From a virus: a stretch of 50,718 nt of DNA. The DNA is taken from IMG/VR virus record IMGVR_UViG_3300011114_000943, positions 1 to 50,718 of that record; one strand, given 5' to 3'. Positions 23,772 to 40,364 of this stretch are shown here, piece by piece (positions within the stretch are counted from its first letter, which is position 1; each line of letters starts with the position of its first letter). The notes beneath the pieces are model-generated. The model saw only the letters and a program-made list of their open reading frames with translations, did no database searches and was not told where the DNA came from. Position numbers and translations under genes: made by a program.

Positions 23772-26657
23772 ATGACGCAGCTCACTACCACACCCGAAGG
23801 CTTCCGCACCGCCGCGTATCTCGCCACCCGAGCTCGTTTGGACGCCGCCCGCAGCCGCAGTGGTAAGACCAGCCGCAGCGTCGACTGCAACCCGCCCAAC
23901 GTCCGTTGTGGAGGCCGCTGCATCCCGCCCTCGTGGGACTGCCGCCTCAAGGGCGAAGGCCCCGATCCGCAGCTCCGCGCTGTAAAGACTGATCCGCTCA
24001 GCGGCTTCGCCAACATCCAACGGGGCATCGGGCGGATCAGCCGCGGCGTGACGCGCGGAAACTTCTCCGAGGTCGAGGGTGGCAAGCGCGCCATCATCCG
24101 TGGCGTGGTGAAGACCGTGCCGGGCGACATCCAGCAGAAGAAGCAACTCAAAACGACCCTCGAGAACCGCACCCGTGCCATCGGCATCGGCCTGGCTGTG
24201 GTGACCGGCGGCCTGGGCATGCACGCGATTCTGATGAAGTCCAACCTGTATGGGTACAACAAGGGTTGGGGGCAAAACATTAACCAGGCCACGCGAGCTG
24301 GCGTTTCCCGTGTTTTAGACAGCCTCCCGGTGCTTGGCGCTCAGCGCCGCGCCACCCGGGCCGCCGTGAGCGCCAACCTCGGTGCGGCCGCCGCCCGCGC
24401 TTCCGCTTCACCGGCGAGCGTCAGCGCCATCCCCGGCACCACAGTGCTGAGCGCCACCGACCGTGAAAGCCACAGTGCGCTGCAGCAGTCGCTGAACAAA
24501 ATCAACAGTGCGACAAGATCCGGTGCTGCAGGTACATCCGGCAACCTAGAGAACTGGAACCAAAAGCACAGCACCGCTTTTTGGAGCGCCACGCGTAAGT
24601 CCGACATCACAGGGCCCGGTGCACCGGCGCGCGTCAGCATCTACGCCGAGCCCACCGCGCAGGAGTATTTGGGTAAGCAATTCGGAGTGCCACCGGGCGA
24701 CCGCAGCTCCCGCTCGAGTGTCAAAGCTGTACTACAAGCGCGCTTTGACGAAGAGCGTCGCGGCCTAGTGTCCCTCGCCAAACAGCAGGGCCTTCGAGTG
24801 CGGAGTGGTCCTAACGGCGACACCATTGATAGCAAGGACATAAACGCTTTTGTCAGTGGTGTAATGCGCAGCCGCCCAATAGCAGATACTGCGGCGCGTC
24901 AAAGCGTAGAAGCTCACGTCCGTTCTGTACTTACTAAAGCGCCTAGCAGCTACACCAATGAAGTGTATAACGCAAGCGTATTGAGCTTCGACAGCTTCTA
25001 CAAAGCCACCAGCCGGGATATTCGTACGATTCCTGGCGCAGCCGCCACCACTGGCCGCCGCATAGCCACACCCCTGAGCACGGGCAGCAACGAGCTCCTG
25101 CGCAACACCAACACCTACCGCTCCACCTACCTGGCGGGCGAAATGCGCGCCCGCACCCAGATGGCAGGCCCAGCGCATGCCGAGCTCGTACAGGCCGCGT
25201 ACTACCACACCAAAGTGGTTGGCACCAACGCCAGCTCGTACACCATCCCCGATCGACTGGCGTTCAACGCCGCCTCCGAGCTCAGCGGGCGTTCCATTAC
25301 CTCCCGCAGCGAGGCCATCGGGATCATCAACCGCGAGACCGGCTTCAGTGGAGCGCGCGTAGCTACCACATCAGCGCCCCGAACTGCAGCACCCCGCACC
25401 ACCGGCCAAGCTCGCCAGGCTACCCGCCAGCTTCGCTCCCGTTCTGAGCTAATCAGCACGCTGACCAAAGGCGGCCTCTCCGCCGAAGCTGCCGCTGCCG
25501 AAGCGGATCGGATCATCGCCCGCCGCGGCGACTCCACCGATCTCCCCCCACGGGTGGCGGCCTACTTGCAGATGCAGCGCCGCGCCGACGCCGCCGGAGA
25601 GAAAGGCCTGGGAAAGCCCTGTGGGGCGTCGCACATCCCCAAAACGTATGAGTGCTCCAAGGGCGCCGCAGGCTCCTCTTCCGCTGGGAACAAGAAAGCA
25701 GCGATCATCGCCGCAGTCGTAGGTGGCGCCGTCGCCATTGGCGTTGCCGGTGCCGTCGCCTACAACGTCAAAACTATCAGCGATCCCAGCAAAACCCCCC
25801 GGGCCCCTAGCCCCAACATCCGCGACGTAGTCAAAGCCGCCAAAGCCGAGGCCGGCACAAAGTCAGCAAGTGAGGCCATGGGCCACTACTACGTCAACAA
25901 GTCAGGTCTCAAACCCGGTGACGTTGTTTACTTCCGCACCGCAAAGGATCCCTCCGCCCACTTCGGCGTCTACCTCGGCCCGGGTAAAGACGGCGTTGTC
26001 CGCGCCGTAATCGCCAACACCAAGGCCAGCCGTTTCAGTTGGGCGGATGTTATGGAGATCGGCGCTACCAAACCCGGTGTCAAAACCGCACAGGCCACCC
26101 TGCCACCCCTGGTCAAAGCCCCCACTCCTCAGTTCCTGCAAGGGGGCAAGGGCCCTTACACCCCTGAAGAGGTGGTGCGGCGCGCAATCCGCATCTCAAG
26201 TACAGACTATAAGTTCTCGGTAACACGCAACAACTGCGAAACACTGGCTAACACAATTGCCTACGGTGTACCTAAGTCCGAACAGCTAGATCGTTTCAAT
26301 CGCGTGTCTAAAACTATGGTTGACTTCACCGTAGGTCGCGGGCAAAGGCGCGAAGGCGAACGCGCCATCTTTGAAGGCAGAGCGCAGGGACGCAATTACA
26401 CCGCAGCCGACTTCTCTAAGTTCCTAGAAGGAGAGCGCGCTTTTAGTTCACCCGAAGGCAAGAACTTAGCCCGCCAATACGACGCATACTTCAAAGGCTA
26501 CAATCTCGATGCACAAAACGCACCAAATTACTTGGGGCTAATCTCGCCATCTGAACTGTGGAGCAGCATCAGCACTTACGAAGCCCCCGTGCGCGCCCAA
26601 GCCATGAGTAACTACCTCTTCGCAGCCCGCACCCTTAAAGAAATGGTGCAGCGCTGA
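23772..26657 (+). CDS. Large tagged virion protein with LRAT-like domain
   Basis: 961 residues. N-terminus with a TPEGFRTA / RARLDAARSR segment and the Cys motif CNPPNVRCGGRCIPPSWDC (23886-23942). A long Ala/Ser/Arg-rich helical part follows. Near residue 615 is a second Cys tag, GKPCGASHIPKTYEC, then a membrane helix (AAIIAAVVGGAVAIGVAGAV). The C-terminal part has an LRAT-like papain-fold domain: LKPGDVVYFRT, AHFGVYLG with His730, and NNCETLANTIAYG with Cys822, matching the H-x-G and NCE motifs of LRAT/NlpC-P60-type acyltransferases and hydrolases. It lies between portal and MuF, where internal or ejected head proteins are commonly encoded. Catalytic activity is inferred. Confidence 0.7.
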   Translation: MTQLTTTPEGFRTAAYLATRARLDAARSRSGKTSRSVDCNPPNVRCGGRCIPPSWDCRLKGEGPDPQLRAVKTDPLSGFANIQRGIGRISRGVTRGNFSEVEGGKRAIIRGVVKTVPGDIQQKKQLKTTLENRTRAIGIGLAVVTGGLGMHAILMKSNLYGYNKGWGQNINQATRAGVSRVLDSLPVLGAQRRATRAAVSANLGAAAARASASPASVSAIPGTTVLSATDRESHSALQQSLNKINSATRSGAAGTSGNLENWNQKHSTAFWSATRKSDITGPGAPARVSIYAEPTAQEYLGKQFGVPPGDRSSRSSVKAVLQARFDEERRGLVSLAKQQGLRVRSGPNGDTIDSKDINAFVSGVMRSRPIADTAARQSVEAHVRSVLTKAPSSYTNEVYNASVLSFDSFYKATSRDIRTIPGAAATTGRRIATPLSTGSNELLRNTNTYRSTYLAGEMRARTQMAGPAHAELVQAAYYHTKVVGTNASSYTIPDRLAFNAASELSGRSITSRSEAIGIINRETGFSGARVATTSAPRTAAPRTTGQARQATRQLRSRSELISTLTKGGLSAEAAAAEADRIIARRGDSTDLPPRVAAYLQMQRRADAAGEKGLGKPCGASHIPKTYECSKGAAGSSSAGNKKAAIIAAVVGGAVAIGVAGAVAYNVKTISDPSKTPRAPSPNIRDVVKAAKAEAGTKSASEAMGHYYVNKSGLKPGDVVYFRTAKDPSAHFGVYLGPGKDGVVRAVIANTKASRFSWADVMEIGATKPGVKTAQATLPPLVKAPTPQFLQGGKGPYTPEEVVRRAIRISSTDYKFSVTRNNCETLANTIAYGVPKSEQLDRFNRVSKTMVDFTVGRGQRREGERAIFEGRAQGRNYTAADFSKFLEGERAFSSPEGKNLARQYDAYFKGYNLDAQNAPNYLGLISPSELWSSISTYEAPVRAQAMSNYLFAARTLKEMVQR

Positions 26658-26660
26658 GCC

Positions 26661-27524
26661 ATGCGCCTCCTCGAGCAATACAACGACGCCCTCCGGCGCA
26701 CCGAGGACGTCTCTATCACCCAACTCAACCGCATCCTCGACGCCTCCTTCAACCGCCTGATCCGCCGCACTCGCGTCCAGATCCGCACTCCCCGCCCGGC
26801 CGTCGACCGCAACCTCTCACTCCTACAGGAGTTCCGCGAGCTCGTGCCCGCCTTTCGCCCCGACCGGGTCGACGGCTACGACCGTGTCCTACGCAGCTTG
26901 ATGCGCAGCGCCCAGGGCAACGGCATCTCCGTAGCGCGCGACCTCACCGAGATCGTCCGCCCGGGCCGGACGCGCATCGACGTATCAATTCCGCTTGATG
27001 CGACCGTGGCCGCCGCAGCCCAGGCCAAGAGCCACCTCCGCCGCCACGGCGAAACTTTCGCCACAACCGCCACCGAGACCGTCGCGCAAGCAATCGCCGC
27101 GGGCCTCCCCACCGACGACCTCGTAAACGACCTGCGCCTCCGCCTTGGCGTGGTCAAATCCCGCGCCGACGTGATCGCTCGCACCGAGGCGCTCCGCGCC
27201 TACGGCGACGCTTCCAACACTTACTACGCTGCGCAGGGCATTGACTTAGTCGTCTCGTACGCAACAGCAGACGATAGGACGTGCGCAATATGTAGCGCCA
27301 GAGCTGGTAAGGTGTACAAAAGAATGAACATTAAAACCCCCTACCATCCGCGCTGTCGTTGTTATTTGAGTCCTTGGGACTCTAACATAGCAGATATAGA
27401 TCCCGATTACGCAGCATTCCCCGAGCAACACCGCGCAGAAGTAGCAAAAACAGCTAAAGATCCACTGAGCGACGATCTATTGCGTTCGGTATTTGAAGCT
27501 CAAGCTCCAGTCCCTTTGCAATAG
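26661..27524 (+). CDS. MuF-like head morphogenesis protein (SPP1 gp7 type)
   Basis: 287 residues. Helical N-terminal half; C-terminal minor-head domain with IARTEALRAYGDASNTYYAA, VSYATADDRTCAICSARAGK and YHPRCRCYLSP, the Cys/His pattern of the Phage_Mu_F domain. In SPP1 and Mu this protein binds the portal and enters the capsid, and in other phages it carries toxin domains that may be ejected. The sequence after 27240 becomes A+T-rich compared with the first part, so the C-terminus may have been exchanged. Confidence 0.85.
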   Translation: MRLLEQYNDALRRTEDVSITQLNRILDASFNRLIRRTRVQIRTPRPAVDRNLSLLQEFRELVPAFRPDRVDGYDRVLRSLMRSAQGNGISVARDLTEIVRPGRTRIDVSIPLDATVAAAAQAKSHLRRHGETFATTATETVAQAIAAGLPTDDLVNDLRLRLGVVKSRADVIARTEALRAYGDASNTYYAAQGIDLVVSYATADDRTCAICSARAGKVYKRMNIKTPYHPRCRCYLSPWDSNIADIDPDYAAFPEQHRAEVAKTAKDPLSDDLLRSVFEAQAPVPLQ

Positions 27525-28676: not shown

Positions 28677-28907
28677 ATGACCCCCGCCTCCCTTCGCCTA
28701 GACCGCGCCGGCTCCAAAGTCGCCGCCATGGAAGCCGAGCTCGCTAAGCAAGCCGCCGCCAAAGGCCTCAAAGGCCCGCGCGCTGCGGCTTACATCTACG
28801 GCACCCTCAACAAGATGGGTTACAAGCAAGGCAGCGAAACCACCCGCAAGGGCGCGGCCAAAGCCAAACGCCGCGACTCGCCCTGGGCTATGGGTTTCGA
28901 GCCATGA
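28677..28907 (+). CDS. Small tagged protein without Cys motif
   Basis: 76 residues. N-terminal MTPASLRLDRAGSKVAAMEA, a Lys/Ala-rich middle (GLKGPRAAAYIYGTLNKMGY) and the C-terminal motif RRDSPWAMGFEP. It has both end tags of the family but no Cys pair and no payload domain, so it may be the minimal form. Its stop overlaps the next start by ATGA. Confidence 0.65.
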   Translation: MTPASLRLDRAGSKVAAMEAELAKQAAAKGLKGPRAAAYIYGTLNKMGYKQGSETTRKGAAKAKRRDSPWAMGFEP

Positions 28908-29281
28908 GCCTCACTCCCGCTACGCTCCGCCTCGACCTCAAATGTGGCGGAGGTTCCATCTCCGAGGGTGAGAAGTGCACCAAGGGGGCGGCGCAGCGAG
29001 TAAACCCAGCCCAGAAAACCTACAAGCTATCGGCAAACGAACGTGCTATTTATACAAGTGCGTTTGCACAAGGCAAGAGTGCGCACTTAAAAGAAGGCAT
29101 AAATAGGCATAAAAGTACTACTGACCCGGTTCAAGCAGCTATAAATAAGTTACGCAAGCGTGAATTGCGCAATCGTAGGATAAAAACTGTAGCAAGCGCC
29201 GCTTTAACTGCGGGCTTAATAGCTAGCGTAATTGACAACAGTAGGAGATCTACGCCCTGGGCCACCGGATTCGCCCCATGA
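28904..29281 (+). CDS. Tagged protein with short hydrophobic payload
   Basis: 125 residues. N-terminal MSLTPATLRLD, directly followed by the tag LKCGGGSISEGEKCTKGAA (28935-28994). The middle part is A+T-rich DNA coding for a basic helical region, a hydrophobic segment (TVASAALTAGLIASVI) and the C-terminal RRSTPWATGFAP. The two tags are GC-rich and the middle is not, which suggests a swapped cassette between fixed ends. ATGA overlap with the next gene. Confidence 0.65.
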   Translation: MSLTPATLRLDLKCGGGSISEGEKCTKGAAQRVNPAQKTYKLSANERAIYTSAFAQGKSAHLKEGINRHKSTTDPVQAAINKLRKRELRNRRIKTVASAALTAGLIASVIDNSRRSTPWATGFAP

Positions 29282-29988
29282 GCCTCACCCCCGCCTCCCT
29301 GCGCCTGCCCGCCCGGCGCCTTGACGCGGCCGTCTTCACCGACAAAAAGCTCCACGCCACCGTCAAAGCCGAAGCGCGCCGCAAGTTCAAGGTCTACCCC
29401 AGCGCCTACGCCAACGCCTGGATGGTCAAGGAGTACAAGCGCCGCGGCGGCAAGTTCCGTGGCGACGCCCTCGACACCTGGTTCAAGGAGAAGTGGGTGC
29501 GCATGAGCAGCTCCGGCCGCATCCTCGGCCCCTGCGGTGACCGCACCGAGGGCGAAGGCAAACCCAAGTGCCTCCCGGCCGCCAAGGCCCAGCGCCTCAC
29601 CGCCGCGCAACGCCGCACGCTGGTCGCGCGCAAGCGCCGCAACGACCCGCGCAAAGAGCGCAGCGGCGCCCCGGTGATGGTGAGCTCCAAAACGGACATC
29701 TGGGCCACGGGTTTTGATGCCGAGGACGGCAAGAAGTACACCAAGGTGGTCACCAACCCCGAAACCGGCCGCAAAAAGCGCATCCGCTACGGCGCCAAGG
29801 GCTACAAGATCGCCCCGGGCACCGACAAGGGCGACCGCTATTGCGCCCGCAGCTTCGGCGACATGAAGTCCCACGGCAAGAACTGCGCTGGCGCCGACCG
29901 CAACACGCCCCTGTGCCTGTCGCGCACCAAGTGGCGCTGCAGCGGCAAGGTGTCGCGGCGTGATGGAGCGCTCACGCCGGGAAAGTAG
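29278..29988 (+). CDS. Tagged basic protein; zero-frame product of a -1 frameshift pair
   Basis: 236 residues. N-terminal MSLTPASLRLPARRLD; then a basic domain with FKVYPSAYANAWMVKEYKRR and GPCGDRTEGEGKPKCLP (29527-29575), resembling the DUF5872 type of phage/virus proteins (from memory); then SSKTDIWATGF; then a second domain with RIRYGAKGYKIAPGTDKGD and CLSRTKWRCSGK. The last residues are DGALTPGK before TAG at 29986. The stop follows directly on the heptamer G-GGA-AAG, from which a -1 shift leads into the kinase-like frame. The unshifted protein would be the major form. Confidence 0.7.
   Translation: MSLTPASLRLPARRLDAAVFTDKKLHATVKAEARRKFKVYPSAYANAWMVKEYKRRGGKFRGDALDTWFKEKWVRMSSSGRILGPCGDRTEGEGKPKCLPAAKAQRLTAAQRRTLVARKRRNDPRKERSGAPVMVSSKTDIWATGFDAEDGKKYTKVVTNPETGRKKRIRYGAKGYKIAPGTDKGDRYCARSFGDMKSHGKNCAGADRNTPLCLSRTKWRCSGKVSRRDGALTPGK
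29979..29985 (+). other. -1 frameshift slippery heptamer GGGAAAG
   Basis: G-GGA-AAG in exact X-XXY-YYZ register with the frame of the upstream gene, followed immediately by its TAG stop. A shift by one base back reads GGG AAA GTA and enters the kinase-like frame, open without stop to 31580. GGGAAAG is the heptamer used by phage lambda G/GT. Downstream pairing options include GTAG/CTAC (29985-29997) and CAGGG/CCCTG near 30025. Confidence 0.7.
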
Positions 29989-31580
29989 CCGGCCTACCGC
30001 GCACCGACGCCCCCAAGGGCGCCCAGGGCAAGCCCTGCGGTGCTTCGCACATTCCGCGCGAACACAAATGCAACAAAAACACAGGCCCTTTAACCGCAGG
30101 AAACCTCAAAACTGCTGCTAAAGTCGCTCTTGCCGTTGGTGCACTAGCAGGAGGTGCTTACTTGACAAAACGCGGAATGATGAGCATGGAGGAGTGGCGC
30201 AAATCCCCTCAAAGTGCTCGCAACAACCCCAAGCTGAGCCCCGAAAGAGCCCAGCAGATCGCCGACGAAGCCATCGCCGGCGGCCAAAAGTGGGACGTCC
30301 AGGAGAAGATCAACGCCCGCCGCCAGGCAGAGCTCAACACCGAGTGCGGGCTTGGCCTGGGAAAGGTCCTGGCCCCGGCGAAGTTTGACGCGCTAGTTCC
30401 CAAGCCGCGTTGCCAAGCCGGGGAAGGTGCATTCGGCACCTACTTTGTTCACCCCTCCGAGAAGTACGGCGTCAAGCTCTTCCGCAACGGCGACGAAGAC
30501 GACGTCGGCTTTGAGTTTGACATGCTCGACCGAGCACGGGCGGCCGGCGTAAACGCCCCCGATCCGCTTTCCATGAAGGCTGTGCGCGACATCGATGGCG
30601 AAATCCGCTCTCAGACCTTGGTGTTGACCCACATGAAGGGCTACAGCACAATCAACAGCCTGGGCTGGTCGGACGGGCAGGGCCGCGCAAGCAGAGCACC
30701 TCTTATTACTAAGGTCAAGCTCGCCCGCGAGTTTAGGAAGCTCCACACAGAAGGTTTAGCCCATGGTGACATCCATTCGGGCAACATAATGGCGAGCGCT
30801 GTTAGCAAGAAACCCGCTCTAATCGATTTCGGCTACGCCACTAACTTGGACTCGTATCACCCCGGCCACGGACGCAGCGGCATCCAGAACCTGATGGTGG
30901 ACCTGAATCGTCTACCTGAGTTCCTGGGGCTCCCCGGTAACGGCAAGGAGTTCCGCGCGCGCTACAAGGGAGTCCTCGACAACATAAAAACCCAAGCCAC
31001 CAACTGGGATATGGGAGTCCAACGCAGCCAATCATGGGATCGCTTCGAGGTCGGCGTCAAGCGGTACCACGACGCCCTCGAGCGCGAACTGCTCGGGCAA
31101 GAAGGGCTCAATCTGCCCCGCTCTCGCTTCATCAGTGGTGCTGACCAACCCCGCATCCCCGGCCTGACGCGCGGCATCTTGACCGCCAACGTCAACACTG
31201 CCCAGCGCGAGGTTGTGGAGTTGCTGCTGGCCCGAGGGGACCGCCCCAGTTTCCTTAAACCAATGGCTAAGGGACTAGGGGTAAAACAGGCGAGCCTGCA
31301 GAGAGCCCTTCAACCCGAGCGCGATGCCCGCTTGGCTAAACAGCGCCGCCAACCTTTCGGCACTCCGCTTCGTCCAACAGCGGAGCCCCCACGTTTCGTA
31401 CAAAAGTTAAATTCAGCGGGTGTGCTGCGGTGGGTAACCAATACTGCGGCCCCTAAAGCCCGCAGGGCGCCACTCGGCAGTTTGTCCGCGCGGGCGCAAA
31501 GCATCCTGGATCGTTCCGGCAACGAAGACATGAGCATGGAGGCCGCTATGCGCTTAGCCCGCGCCGAACAGCGCGGCTGA
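29979..31580 (+). CDS. Protein-kinase-like domain protein, made by -1 frameshift fusion
   Basis: The frame is open from 29964, but the first ATG/GTG/TTG is a TTG at 30162. The stretch before it codes for the Cys tag GKPCGASHIPREHKCNKN (30027-30080) and a hydrophobic helix (AAKVALAVGALAGGAYL), so translation must enter from upstream, most simply by the frameshift; the fusion would have about 767 residues. Kinase features: Gly-rich loop GEGAFGTYFV, Lys in YGVKLFR (30474-30476), HGDIHSGN with Asp at 30768 and Asn at 30783, and IDFGYA with Asp at 30825. All catalytic positions of protein/small-molecule kinases are present. The C-terminal 150 residues are basic and of unknown role. Confidence 0.65.
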   Translation, partial: GKVAGLPRTDAPKGAQGKPCGASHIPREHKCNKNTGPLTAGNLKTAAKVALAVGALAGGAYLTKRGMMSMEEWRKSPQSARNNPKLSPERAQQIADEAIAGGQKWDVQEKINARRQAELNTECGLGLGKVLAPAKFDALVPKPRCQAGEGAFGTYFVHPSEKYGVKLFRNGDEDDVGFEFDMLDRARAAGVNAPDPLSMKAVRDIDGEIRSQTLVLTHMKGYSTINSLGWSDGQGRASRAPLITKVKLAREFRKLHTEGLAHGDIHSGNIMASAVSKKPALIDFGYATNLDSYHPGHGRSGIQNLMVDLNRLPEFLGLPGNGKEFRARYKGVLDNIKTQATNWDMGVQRSQSWDRFEVGVKRYHDALERELLGQEGLNLPRSRFISGADQPRIPGLTRGILTANVNTAQREVVELLLARGDRPSFLKPMAKGLGVKQASLQRALQPERDARLAKQRRQPFGTPLRPTAEPPRFVQKLNSAGVLRWVTNTAAPKARRAPLGSLSARAQSILDRSGNEDMSMEAAMRLARAEQRG

Positions 31581-39410: not shown

Positions 39411-39939
39411 CTACGCGTCTTTACTTTTCGCCCCCGAGGAGTACCACCAAATCGGGCCCTTCCGCTTCCCCATTTACCACGACCTGGTACCAGGCGAAGC
39501 CAAAGGCATCGAGACCATCGGACGCAAACAGTCCAAATCGACCTTCCGCTCCATCAAGCTGGCGCAGCGCATCGCCAAGGACAAGGAGATCACCACCAAA
39601 GAGGCCGTCGACCTCCTGAGCGCCTCGGAAAACTCCGACCTCCTCTACGACTACGCCACCGAGCTCGAGGATCTACAGCGCGAATCCGTCGGCGCCGTTG
39701 AACAGCAAATCGCCCTGGTGACGCTGTTCATGCGCTACCGCGCCGAAGCCAAGCTGCCCAAGACCAAGGACTGGCAAAAGCTGAGCGACTGGACTGAAGA
39801 GGACACCGAGGCTATCCCCACCAAGCTCATGGAGGAAATCTTCCAGCTCATCACCTGGGAGCGTGACGGCTGGCCGAGCGCGGGGGGAAACGAACCGGAG
39901 GCGGAACCAGAGTTCAGCCCACCCCCGAACAAATCCTGA
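39403..39939 (+). CDS. Tail assembly chaperone, G-like product
   Basis: 178 residues from the ATG at 39403 (MANYASLL). Helical, with SKSTFRSIKLAQRIAKDKEI and LEDLQRESVGAVEQQIALVT; acidic near the end. The place between tail tube and tape measure, and the frameshift near its 3' end, identify it as the G component of the G/GT chaperone pair that keeps the tape measure protein soluble during tail assembly. Confidence 0.82.
   Translation: MANYASLLFAPEEYHQIGPFRFPIYHDLVPGEAKGIETIGRKQSKSTFRSIKLAQRIAKDKEITTKEAVDLLSASENSDLLYDYATELEDLQRESVGAVEQQIALVTLFMRYRAEAKLPKTKDWQKLSDWTEEDTEAIPTKLMEEIFQLITWERDGWPSAGGNEPEAEPEFSPPPNKS
39885..39891 (+). other. -1 frameshift slippery heptamer GGGAAAC
   Basis: G-GGA-AAC in X-XXY-YYZ register with the G frame. 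A -1 shift reads GGG AAA CGA and stays open to 40364. It is the same type of site as the one at 29979, and in the position where siphoviruses shift to make GT. Confidence 0.85.
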
Positions 39940-40364
39940 AGCAAGCGGAGGACACCCTCCGCACCCCCTTAACTGACTGGGATTCCCTGTACTTCCGAAT
40001 GCGGGCGTCCTCGGTGGGGGGCGACTTCACCCCCGAGCGCTTCGTCCGCACTCCAATTAGTACTATTCGATGGCTGCTGCGCCAGATCGACGACGACGAG
40101 CGCGGCCGCATGAACCTGGGCAGCCTGAGTACGGCGAAGATGACCGCGATTCTCATTCAAATCGCACACGGCTTCTCCGGCTCCAAGCGCTCCGCGCCAA
40201 AGGTAGCCCCCCGCGACTTCCTCCCCTTCCCCGAATGGAAACCGAGCACGGCTATCGCCGACGGCCCCTCCGCGCCCACAAAGTTCATCCTCACCGAGCT
40301 CGTGCGCACGCGGCGCCTCCCCATGCACGTCTATGCGGCACTCGCTACAGGGACCGACAGCTAG
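39885..40364 (+). CDS. T part of the tail assembly chaperone GT (by -1 frameshift)
   Basis: After the shift at 39885-39891 the frame gives TPEQILKQAEDTLRTPLTDW, then FVRTPISTIRWLLRQIDDDE, RGRMNLGSLSTAKMTAILIQ and a basic/hydrophobic end; about 157 residues, for a fusion of about 320. The region has no good ribosome-binding site of its own, and the first in-frame ATG at 39999 would cut off a helical part. The T part recruits the tail tube proteins to the chaperone-bound tape measure. Confidence 0.8.
   Translation, partial: GKRTGGGTRVQPTPEQILKQAEDTLRTPLTDWDSLYFRMRASSVGGDFTPERFVRTPISTIRWLLRQIDDDERGRMNLGSLSTAKMTAILIQIAHGFSGSKRSAPKVAPRDFLPFPEWKPSTAIADGPSAPTKFILTELVRTRRLPMHVYAALATGTDS

What the first reader, a model, noticed from the sequence alone, without database searches (positions are those of the whole stretch)
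29979..30165. A second lambda-type -1 frameshift site fuses a tagged protein to a kinase-like domain
GGGAAAG lies in exact -1 register directly before the TAG of the 29278 gene. The new frame is open for 531 residues. The first 59 codons after the shift contain no start codon but do encode a complete Cys tag and a membrane helix of the same type as in the 23772 gene, so the frame must be entered from upstream. The phage's tail chaperone uses GGGAAAC at 39885 in the same way. Programmed frameshifting outside the tail chaperone is rarely reported in siphoviruses.
Basis: partly seen in the sequence, partly recalled or inferred. Interest (0 to 1): 0.9.

Follow-up and report, generated by a model that had tools for sequence, protein, structure and literature searches.

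The report
Frameshift cassette fusing phage protein to kinase
A probable cyanobacterial virus, and about two dozen relatives, keep the same 7-letter ribosome-slipping signal at the end of a head-region gene, so that some copies of that protein should be made with an enzyme (usually a kinase, once a toxin-like ADP-ribosyltransferase) attached; this is probably a way to load a few enzyme molecules into each virus particle.

Summary
G_GGA_AAG (29979-29985) lies in exact -1 register directly before the TAG of the 29278 gene. The -1 frame is open for 531 codons, with no start in its first 59. IMG/VR relatives give 25 distinct junctions with the in-register heptamer and an open -1 frame of at least 107 codons; the 0-frame stop lies 7, 16 or 19 nt after the heptamer start. 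The heptamer's Gly codon is GGA in 18/18 loci, against 3/126 at neighbouring conserved Gly positions. The -1 frame before any start codon is under purifying selection (pN/pS 0.36). Five relatives carry the same fusion in one continuous frame, without a heptamer in slip register; sister phages without a -1 gene mostly lack the heptamer. The payload varies: kinase, ADP-ribosyltransferase, or both. Two loci about 98% identical up to the end of the Cys tag carry different enzymes. Best explanation: lambda-type -1 frameshifting used as a portable joint between a head-module carrier and swappable tagged effectors, giving a low-copy, Gag-Pol-like fusion, probably virion-packaged. The frameshift is inferred from comparison, not measured; packaging is inference. 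Frameshifted extensions of phage virion proteins are known; attaching catalytic effectors this way appears to be a new variant.

The parts
29278..29988 (+). 0-frame carrier gene, 236 aa, ends ...LTPGK-TAG
   Evidence: Pfam DUF5872
29338..29628 (+). DUF5872 domain (residues 21-117)
   Evidence: PF19197, E 9e-12
29716..29985 (+). Cys-rich C-terminal carrier domain (residues 147-236), shared by most but not all slip loci
29979..29985 (+). slippery heptamer G_GGA_AAG
29986..29988 (+). 0-frame TAG stop directly after the heptamer (7, 16 or 19 nt from heptamer start in relatives)
29985..31580 (+). -1 frame extension, 531 codons, entered by slippage
   Evidence: purifying selection before first start codon
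30027..30077 (+). Cys tag GKPCGASHIPREHKCNK in the -1 frame
30111..30167 (+). Gly/Ala-rich hydrophobic helix after the tag
   Evidence: hydropathy scan; helix in AF2 model
30432..31094 (+). kinase-like domain with VxxK, alphaC Glu, HGDIHxxN and DFG residues conserved
30149..30164 (+). possible internal start: AGGAGG (30149-30154), 7 nt, TTG (30162-30164); would give a tagless 472-aa kinase; not conserved in all relatives
39885..39891 (+). second heptamer GGGAAAC of the likely tail assembly chaperone pair, for comparison

Best explanation
At GGGAAAG a minority of ribosomes slip back one base (tRNA-Gly and tRNA-Lys re-pair from GGA-AAG to GGG-AAA). Instead of ending at TAG they make a ~767-aa fusion: DUF5872/Cys-rich carrier, then Cys tag, hydrophobic helix and kinase. 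The rest of the ribosomes make the 236-aa carrier. The heptamer, with the conserved LTPGK / V.GL.R.DAP.G..GKPCG flanks, behaves as a portable joint: carriers vary on the 5' side and enzyme payloads on the 3' side. Shown by comparison: a conserved slip site, a translated -1 frame, an attested fusion, payload exchange. Inferred: the frameshift rate (low, as in lambda G-T), incorporation of carrier plus fusion into the virion head (the genes sit between MuF/portal and the head protease/capsid genes), and injection of the kinase to modify host proteins at the start of infection. In plain terms, a Gag-Pol-like trick for packaging a few effector molecules per particle.
For: Register, open frame and absence of starts. 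25 distinct 120-nt junctions, window included, with in-register GGGAAAG, 0-frame stop at 7/16/19 nt and a -1 frame of 107-761 codons (individual loci). Loci were found by protein, not by heptamer, so the heptamer was not selected for. Gly codon of the slip is GGA in 18/18 unique loci versus 3/126 at seven other conserved Gly columns, and CCG-GGA-AAG is invariant where upstream pS is 0.41. -1-frame codons 3-34, upstream of any start codon in nearly all loci, have pN/pS 0.36 versus above 1.2 in the other two frames, 17 unique sequences. In-frame natural fusions without a heptamer in slip register: L010 (extra G), L133, L143 (heptamer replaced by CTCACC), L141, L142. No -1 gene and no GGGAAAG: L036, L039, L040 and others. 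Payload swap at the joint: L017 and L019 are about 98% identical up to 95 nt past the slip, then unrelated, kinase versus ADP-ribosyltransferase PF03496. Carrier swap: L139, L140, L145, L152, L150 and L003 keep the joint with other or almost deleted carriers. Kinase catalytic residues invariant. Position in the head module: portal, MuF-type minor head protein, head maturation protease, major head protein. G_GGA_AAG is highly shift-prone in E. coli (PMC5009743).
Against: No ribosome profiling, reporter or proteomic data. No conserved downstream RNA structure or upstream Shine-Dalgarno-like stimulator was found (folding z-scores scatter around zero), so efficiency is unknown. A possible internal start (AGGAGG then TTG 30162) could make a tagless kinase in this and some other phages. 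Virion packaging is inferred from gene position only: no homologue with proteomics was found, and the carrier's structure could not be modelled (pLDDT 44.5). In a few phages (L020 type) the heptamer remains although the -1 gene is gone, so its presence alone does not prove use.
Confidence: 0.88

Rival explanations
1. The kinase is a separate gene translated from the internal TTG at 30162 (or ATG 30177) with its own Shine-Dalgarno; the -1 frame before it is a relic.
For: AGGAGG sits 7 nt before TTG 30162; distant relatives L014 and L147 have a standalone tag-helix-kinase gene with its own ATG, without a slip site.
Against: The 32 codons after the slip are under purifying selection in the -1 frame only. 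Several phages with the same arrangement have no ATG/GTG/TTG until codon 66-145 (L012, L017, L021, L028, L061) or later (L019, 179). The GGA codon at the slip is fixed. Internal initiation may coexist as a second product.
Confidence: 0.07
2. A sequencing/assembly error or recent indel broke a single long gene in this contig.
For: In-frame versions exist in relatives (L010, L133, L143).
Against: The same -1 break at the same heptamer occurs in 25 distinct junctions from many metagenomes with a 0-frame stop always 7-19 nt from the heptamer start; synonymous-site divergence around it is 0.4-0.5.
Confidence: 0.02
3. Frameshifting occurs, but the fusion is not a packaged effector: it acts inside the infected cell during assembly (for example a head-assembly chaperone pair like lambda G/GT, absent from the virion).
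For: lambda gpG and gpGT are made by the same kind of -1 frameshift and neither stays in the virion (PMC5009743); no virion data exist for these phages.
Against: Payloads are diverse enzymes (kinase, ADP-ribosyltransferase) and swap freely, which fits effectors better than an assembly factor; many relatives lack the payload altogether.
Confidence: 0.3

Closest known systems
Lambda gpG/gpGT tail assembly chaperone -1 frameshift (and this phage's own GGGAAAC site at 39885)
   Same: G_GGA_AAG-class heptamer, 3' end of gene, low-copy C-terminal fusion, no obvious strong stimulator found
   Different: Here the carrier is a DUF5872/Cys protein in the head module and the extension is an enzyme, not a major-tail-protein-binding domain
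Frameshifted C-terminal extensions of phage virion proteins (T7/T3 gene 10B, Lactobacillus phage A2, Listeria PSA/A118/A500; Ig-like domains)
   Same: A fraction of a structural protein carries an extra C-terminal domain by frameshift; homologous extensions occur in frame in other phages (PMC5009743)
   Different: Those extensions are Ig-like or short decorative domains; here they are exchangeable catalytic effectors with their own Cys tag and hydrophobic helix
MuF polymorphic toxins and polyvalent proteins of phages (Jamet et al. PMC5576092; Iyer et al. PMC5512222)
   Same: Head-module carrier joined to variable kinase, ADP-ribosyltransferase and other effector domains thought to be injected
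   Different: Carrier is not MuF (a separate MuF-type gene lies at 26661), and the joint is a -1 frameshift site instead of an in-frame fusion; the polyvalent-protein paper does not mention frameshifting
Retroviral Gag-Pol
   Same: Frameshifting keeps the enzyme at a low ratio and lets the structural half carry it into the particle (PMC5009743)
   Different: Analogy only; no homology, packaging not shown here

Membership tests
-1 programmed ribosomal frameshifting (bacterial X_XXY_YYZ type) | Slippery heptamer in zero-frame register near the zero-frame stop | tested here: met
-1 programmed ribosomal frameshifting (bacterial X_XXY_YYZ type) | Heptamer conserved beyond the encoded amino acids | tested here: met
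   GGA 18/18 versus 3/126 elsewhere
-1 programmed ribosomal frameshifting (bacterial X_XXY_YYZ type) | -1 frame downstream is translated, without its own start | tested here: met
   pN/pS 0.36 before any start codon; in-frame homologous fusions
-1 programmed ribosomal frameshifting (bacterial X_XXY_YYZ type) | Stimulatory RNA structure or SD-like element (often but not always present) | tested here: not met
   no conserved structure, z-scores around zero; a common accompaniment, not a defining requirement
-1 programmed ribosomal frameshifting (bacterial X_XXY_YYZ type) | Measured frameshift product | not testable with these tools
   needs reporter or proteomics
Frameshift-extended virion proteins (T7 10B / Ig-like type) | Base protein is a virion component | not testable with these tools
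   only gene position in the head module supports it
Frameshift-extended virion proteins (T7 10B / Ig-like type) | Extension is an Ig-like or decoration domain | tested here: not met
   extension is a kinase or ADP-ribosyltransferase
MuF polymorphic toxins | N-terminal MuF domain | tested here: not met
   carrier hits DUF5872 only; the MuF-like protein is a separate gene, 26661-27524
MuF polymorphic toxins | Variable C-terminal effector domains on a constant carrier | tested here: met
   kinase versus ADP-ribosyltransferase at the same joint
Protein-kinase-like phosphotransferases (APH/Kdo/RIO) | Catalytic Lys, alphaC Glu, HxDxxxxN, DFG | tested here: met
   invariant in 15 homologues; PF01636 7.7e-9; kinase-fold matches in PDB

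The most novel reading that the evidence does not exclude
A transferable frameshift cassette: a conserved slip-site joint of roughly 100 nt (LTPGK slip, then V.GL.R.DAP.G..GKPCG tag) that recombines between different head-associated carriers and different tagged effectors in a group of cyanophage-like viruses, dosing virion-packaged, injected kinases and ADP-ribosyltransferases at Gag-Pol-like low stoichiometry.
Probability: 0.5. Interest if true: 0.85.

Novelty: new variant of a known kind. Interest (0 to 1): 0.74.

Why it matters
It would show frameshifting used in tailed phages to set the dose of an enzyme attached to a probable head protein, the logic of retroviral Gag-Pol, and would show the slip site acting as a modular joint through which phages exchange effectors. 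It also gives a practical rule: -1 frame effectors behind GGGAAAG are missed by ordinary gene callers, which would start the kinase at an internal TTG or ATG and lose its tag. The prediction is directly testable by a reporter assay and by proteomics.

Tried and rejected
Downstream stimulatory structure: two small hairpins (CGCCC..GGGCG and AGGG..CCCT) recur but lie 20 nt or more from the slip, break in L008 and L038, and are not more stable than shuffles; rejected as a proven element. First frame-0 dN/dS estimate (upstream part) was misaligned by an indel and was replaced by the codon alignment. Structure of the carrier: AF2 model too poor to search; no PDB relative by profile. Virion evidence through isolates: S-TIM5, CRP-212 and Vibrio phage homologues of the Cys domain are annotated as hypothetical; the nearest isolate by capsid, Synechococcus phage S-CBS4 (55%), has no such genes listed between portal and protease. 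tblastn of the kinase in 50,697 phage records: no match. Cellular genomes: one distant kinase fragment only. The GGGTTTC at 28892 is an ATGA-overlap neighbour, most simply ordinary coupling. Transcriptional slippage was rejected from general knowledge: GGGAAA is too short a run.

Full report
WHAT IS THERE. The window is a 50,718-bp IMG/VR virus record with a siphovirus-type gene order: terminase 19901, portal 21900, MuF-type minor head protein 26661, head maturation protease 33227 and major head protein 35161. The closest isolate by capsid protein is Synechococcus phage S-CBS4 (55% identity), so a picocyanobacterial host is likely but not shown. Between portal and protease lie several genes with a short Cys tag (KCGxGSIxxxxKCxK or GKPCGxSHIPxxxxCxK), often followed by a Gly/Ala-rich hydrophobic helix. 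The gene 29278-29988 codes for a DUF5872 domain and a Cys-rich C-terminal domain and ends CCG GGA AAG TAG. The heptamer G_GGA_AAG at 29979-29985 is exactly in -1 register. The -1 frame is open for 531 codons and encodes tag, helix and a kinase-like domain; its first possible start is codon 60 after the heptamer (TTG 30162).

IS IT MORE THAN CHANCE. With this window's codon use an in-register GGGAAAG at the last codon pair of any of 23 genes is expected about 0.001 times. Only two plus-strand sites of the GGG-AAA class combine a nearby stop with a long -1 frame: this one and the tail-chaperone site at 39885.

RELATIVES. Protein searches that ignore the heptamer and one exact pattern scan brought in the relatives. 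After removing duplicates there are 29 distinct 120-nt junctions. Of these, 25, window included, have the in-register heptamer followed by a 0-frame stop 7, 16 or 19 nt from the heptamer start and a -1 frame of 107 to 761 codons. The other four are L010 and L133 (in-frame fusions), L042 (truncated and frame-broken contig) and L053 (payload lost).

SELECTION. In a codon alignment of 18 unique loci the carrier C-terminus evolves under constraint (pS 0.41, pN/pS 0.29), yet the slip codons are fixed. The Gly codon is GGA in 18/18 loci, while at seven other conserved Gly columns GGA is used 3 times in 126. Three of these 18 loci (L093, L104, L107) came from the pattern scan; the rest were found by protein. 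The upstream ACGCC was required by the pattern used to collect the set, so its invariance is not counted; L139 and L140 show it can change (ATGCC, CCGCC) while GGGAAAG stays. In the -1 frame the 32 codons after the slip have pN/pS 0.36, against 1.28 and 1.72 when the same DNA is read in the other frames. That stretch precedes any ATG/GTG/TTG in nearly all loci (the one exception is L044, with a GTG at codon 6), so it must be translated from upstream.

NATURAL CONTROLS. Five relatives make the same fusion in one frame: L010 (one extra G, CCGGGGAAAGTT), L133 (DGKVVGL in frame), L143 (heptamer replaced by CTCACC), L141 and L142 (other linker). Relatives with a homologous carrier but no -1 gene usually end elsewhere or have lost the heptamer (L036, L039, L040, L059). 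In the L020 group the heptamer survives but the kinase has been deleted, apparently leaving a relic of its FGTPL end. Two distant relatives (L014, L147) have the tagged kinase as a standalone ATG gene. The picture is a kinase cassette that exists standalone, fused in frame, or, most often here, fused by a conserved slip site.

MODULARITY. L017 and L019 are about 98% identical through the carrier and identical for about 95 nt past the slip, to the end of the Cys tag, then unrelated: one continues into a kinase, the other into an ADP-ribosyltransferase (PF03496, E 4e-6). L012 carries the ADP-ribosyltransferase-like region (46% identical to L019) and then a second tag and a kinase. L028 has a RIO-like kinase in the -1 frame and another kinase-like domain in frame 0. 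L107 adds a new N-terminal module before tag and kinase, and L093 ends in a region with only sub-threshold peptidase hits. On the 5' side the carrier can be DUF5872+Cys, another N-terminus+Cys, a protein without the Cys domain (L139, L140, L145, L152, L150) or just an 18-codon leader (L003), always ending in ...LTPGK or a close variant in the right frame.

THE KINASE. Catalytic Lys164, Glu177, His260/Asp262/Asn267 and Asp281-Phe-Gly are invariant in 15 homologues. The model has mean pLDDT 66.8 with a confident core at about residues 150-370 and matches protein kinases in PDB and viral libraries, as does a profile search. The TM-scores are low because much of the model is uncertain. The best reading is an active protein-kinase-like phosphotransferase; its substrate is unknown.

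HOW IT MOST LIKELY WORKS. Shown by comparison: slip site, -1 coding, fusion product, payload exchange. Inferred: a low frameshift rate, as for the lambda G/T pair; the review PMC5009743 reports G_GGA_AAG as highly shift-prone in E. coli and gives a 30:1 product ratio for lambda. Also inferred: assembly of the carrier, with a few extended copies, into the head. The genes sit in the head module, where MuF and polyvalent effector fusions are also found (PMC5512222). A Gag-Pol-like dosing of packaged effectors follows naturally, but no virion data were available, and a chaperone-like role without packaging remains possible (about 30%).

NOVELTY. Frameshifted C-terminal extensions of virion proteins are known (T3, T7, A2, PSA, A118, A500; PMC5009743), so the kind is known. 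PRFect's authors note that frameshift calls between MuF-like and VIP2 ADP-ribosyltransferase genes turned up among their 'false positives' and could be real (PMC10885494), which is the nearest hint in print that I found. I found no report of a conserved slip site joining head-module proteins to exchangeable kinases or ADP-ribosyltransferases; the library holds open-licence papers only, so this is not proof of absence.

LIMITS. No expression data. The relatives are metagenomic contigs, some from related samples. pN/pS values are simple pairwise counts (Nei-Gojobori style, no multiple-hit correction). No stimulatory structure was found, and efficiency cannot be predicted. The confidence of 0.88 is for the frameshift fusion; virion packaging alone I would put at roughly 0.5 to 0.6.

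Noticed in passing
window 23772-26657: 961-aa protein with the same Cys tag and helix plus an LRAT/NlpC-P60-like domain (PF04970 8e-7): probably another tagged effector in the same array.
   Followed up: partly
window 30149-30164: Strong Shine-Dalgarno-like AGGAGG seven bases before TTG 30162 inside the helix-coding part of the -1 frame; may give a second, tagless kinase in some phages.
   Followed up: partly
L003 5151-5951: Tagged protein carrying a DnaJ domain (PF00226, 4.5e-9) directly upstream of an 18-codon leader that keeps the slip site.
   Followed up: no
L020, L023, L033, L034, L035, L048 (between the slip and the 0-frame stop 46 nt on): Kinase deleted but heptamer and a PFGTPL-stop remnant remain; the PFGTP motif also ends or nearly ends most of the kinases, so it may be a functional C-terminal motif.
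   Followed up: no
L093 7298-8737 (-): -1 frame payload whose C-terminal part has only sub-threshold hits to metallopeptidase families, not a kinase.
   Followed up: no
window 28892: GGGTTTC in -1 register 13 nt before the stop of the 28677 gene; the next gene starts at the overlapping ATGA, so ordinary coupling is the simpler reading.
   Followed up: no
window 39885-40364: GGGAAAC site of the likely tail assembly chaperone pair confirmed in -1 register.
   Followed up: yes
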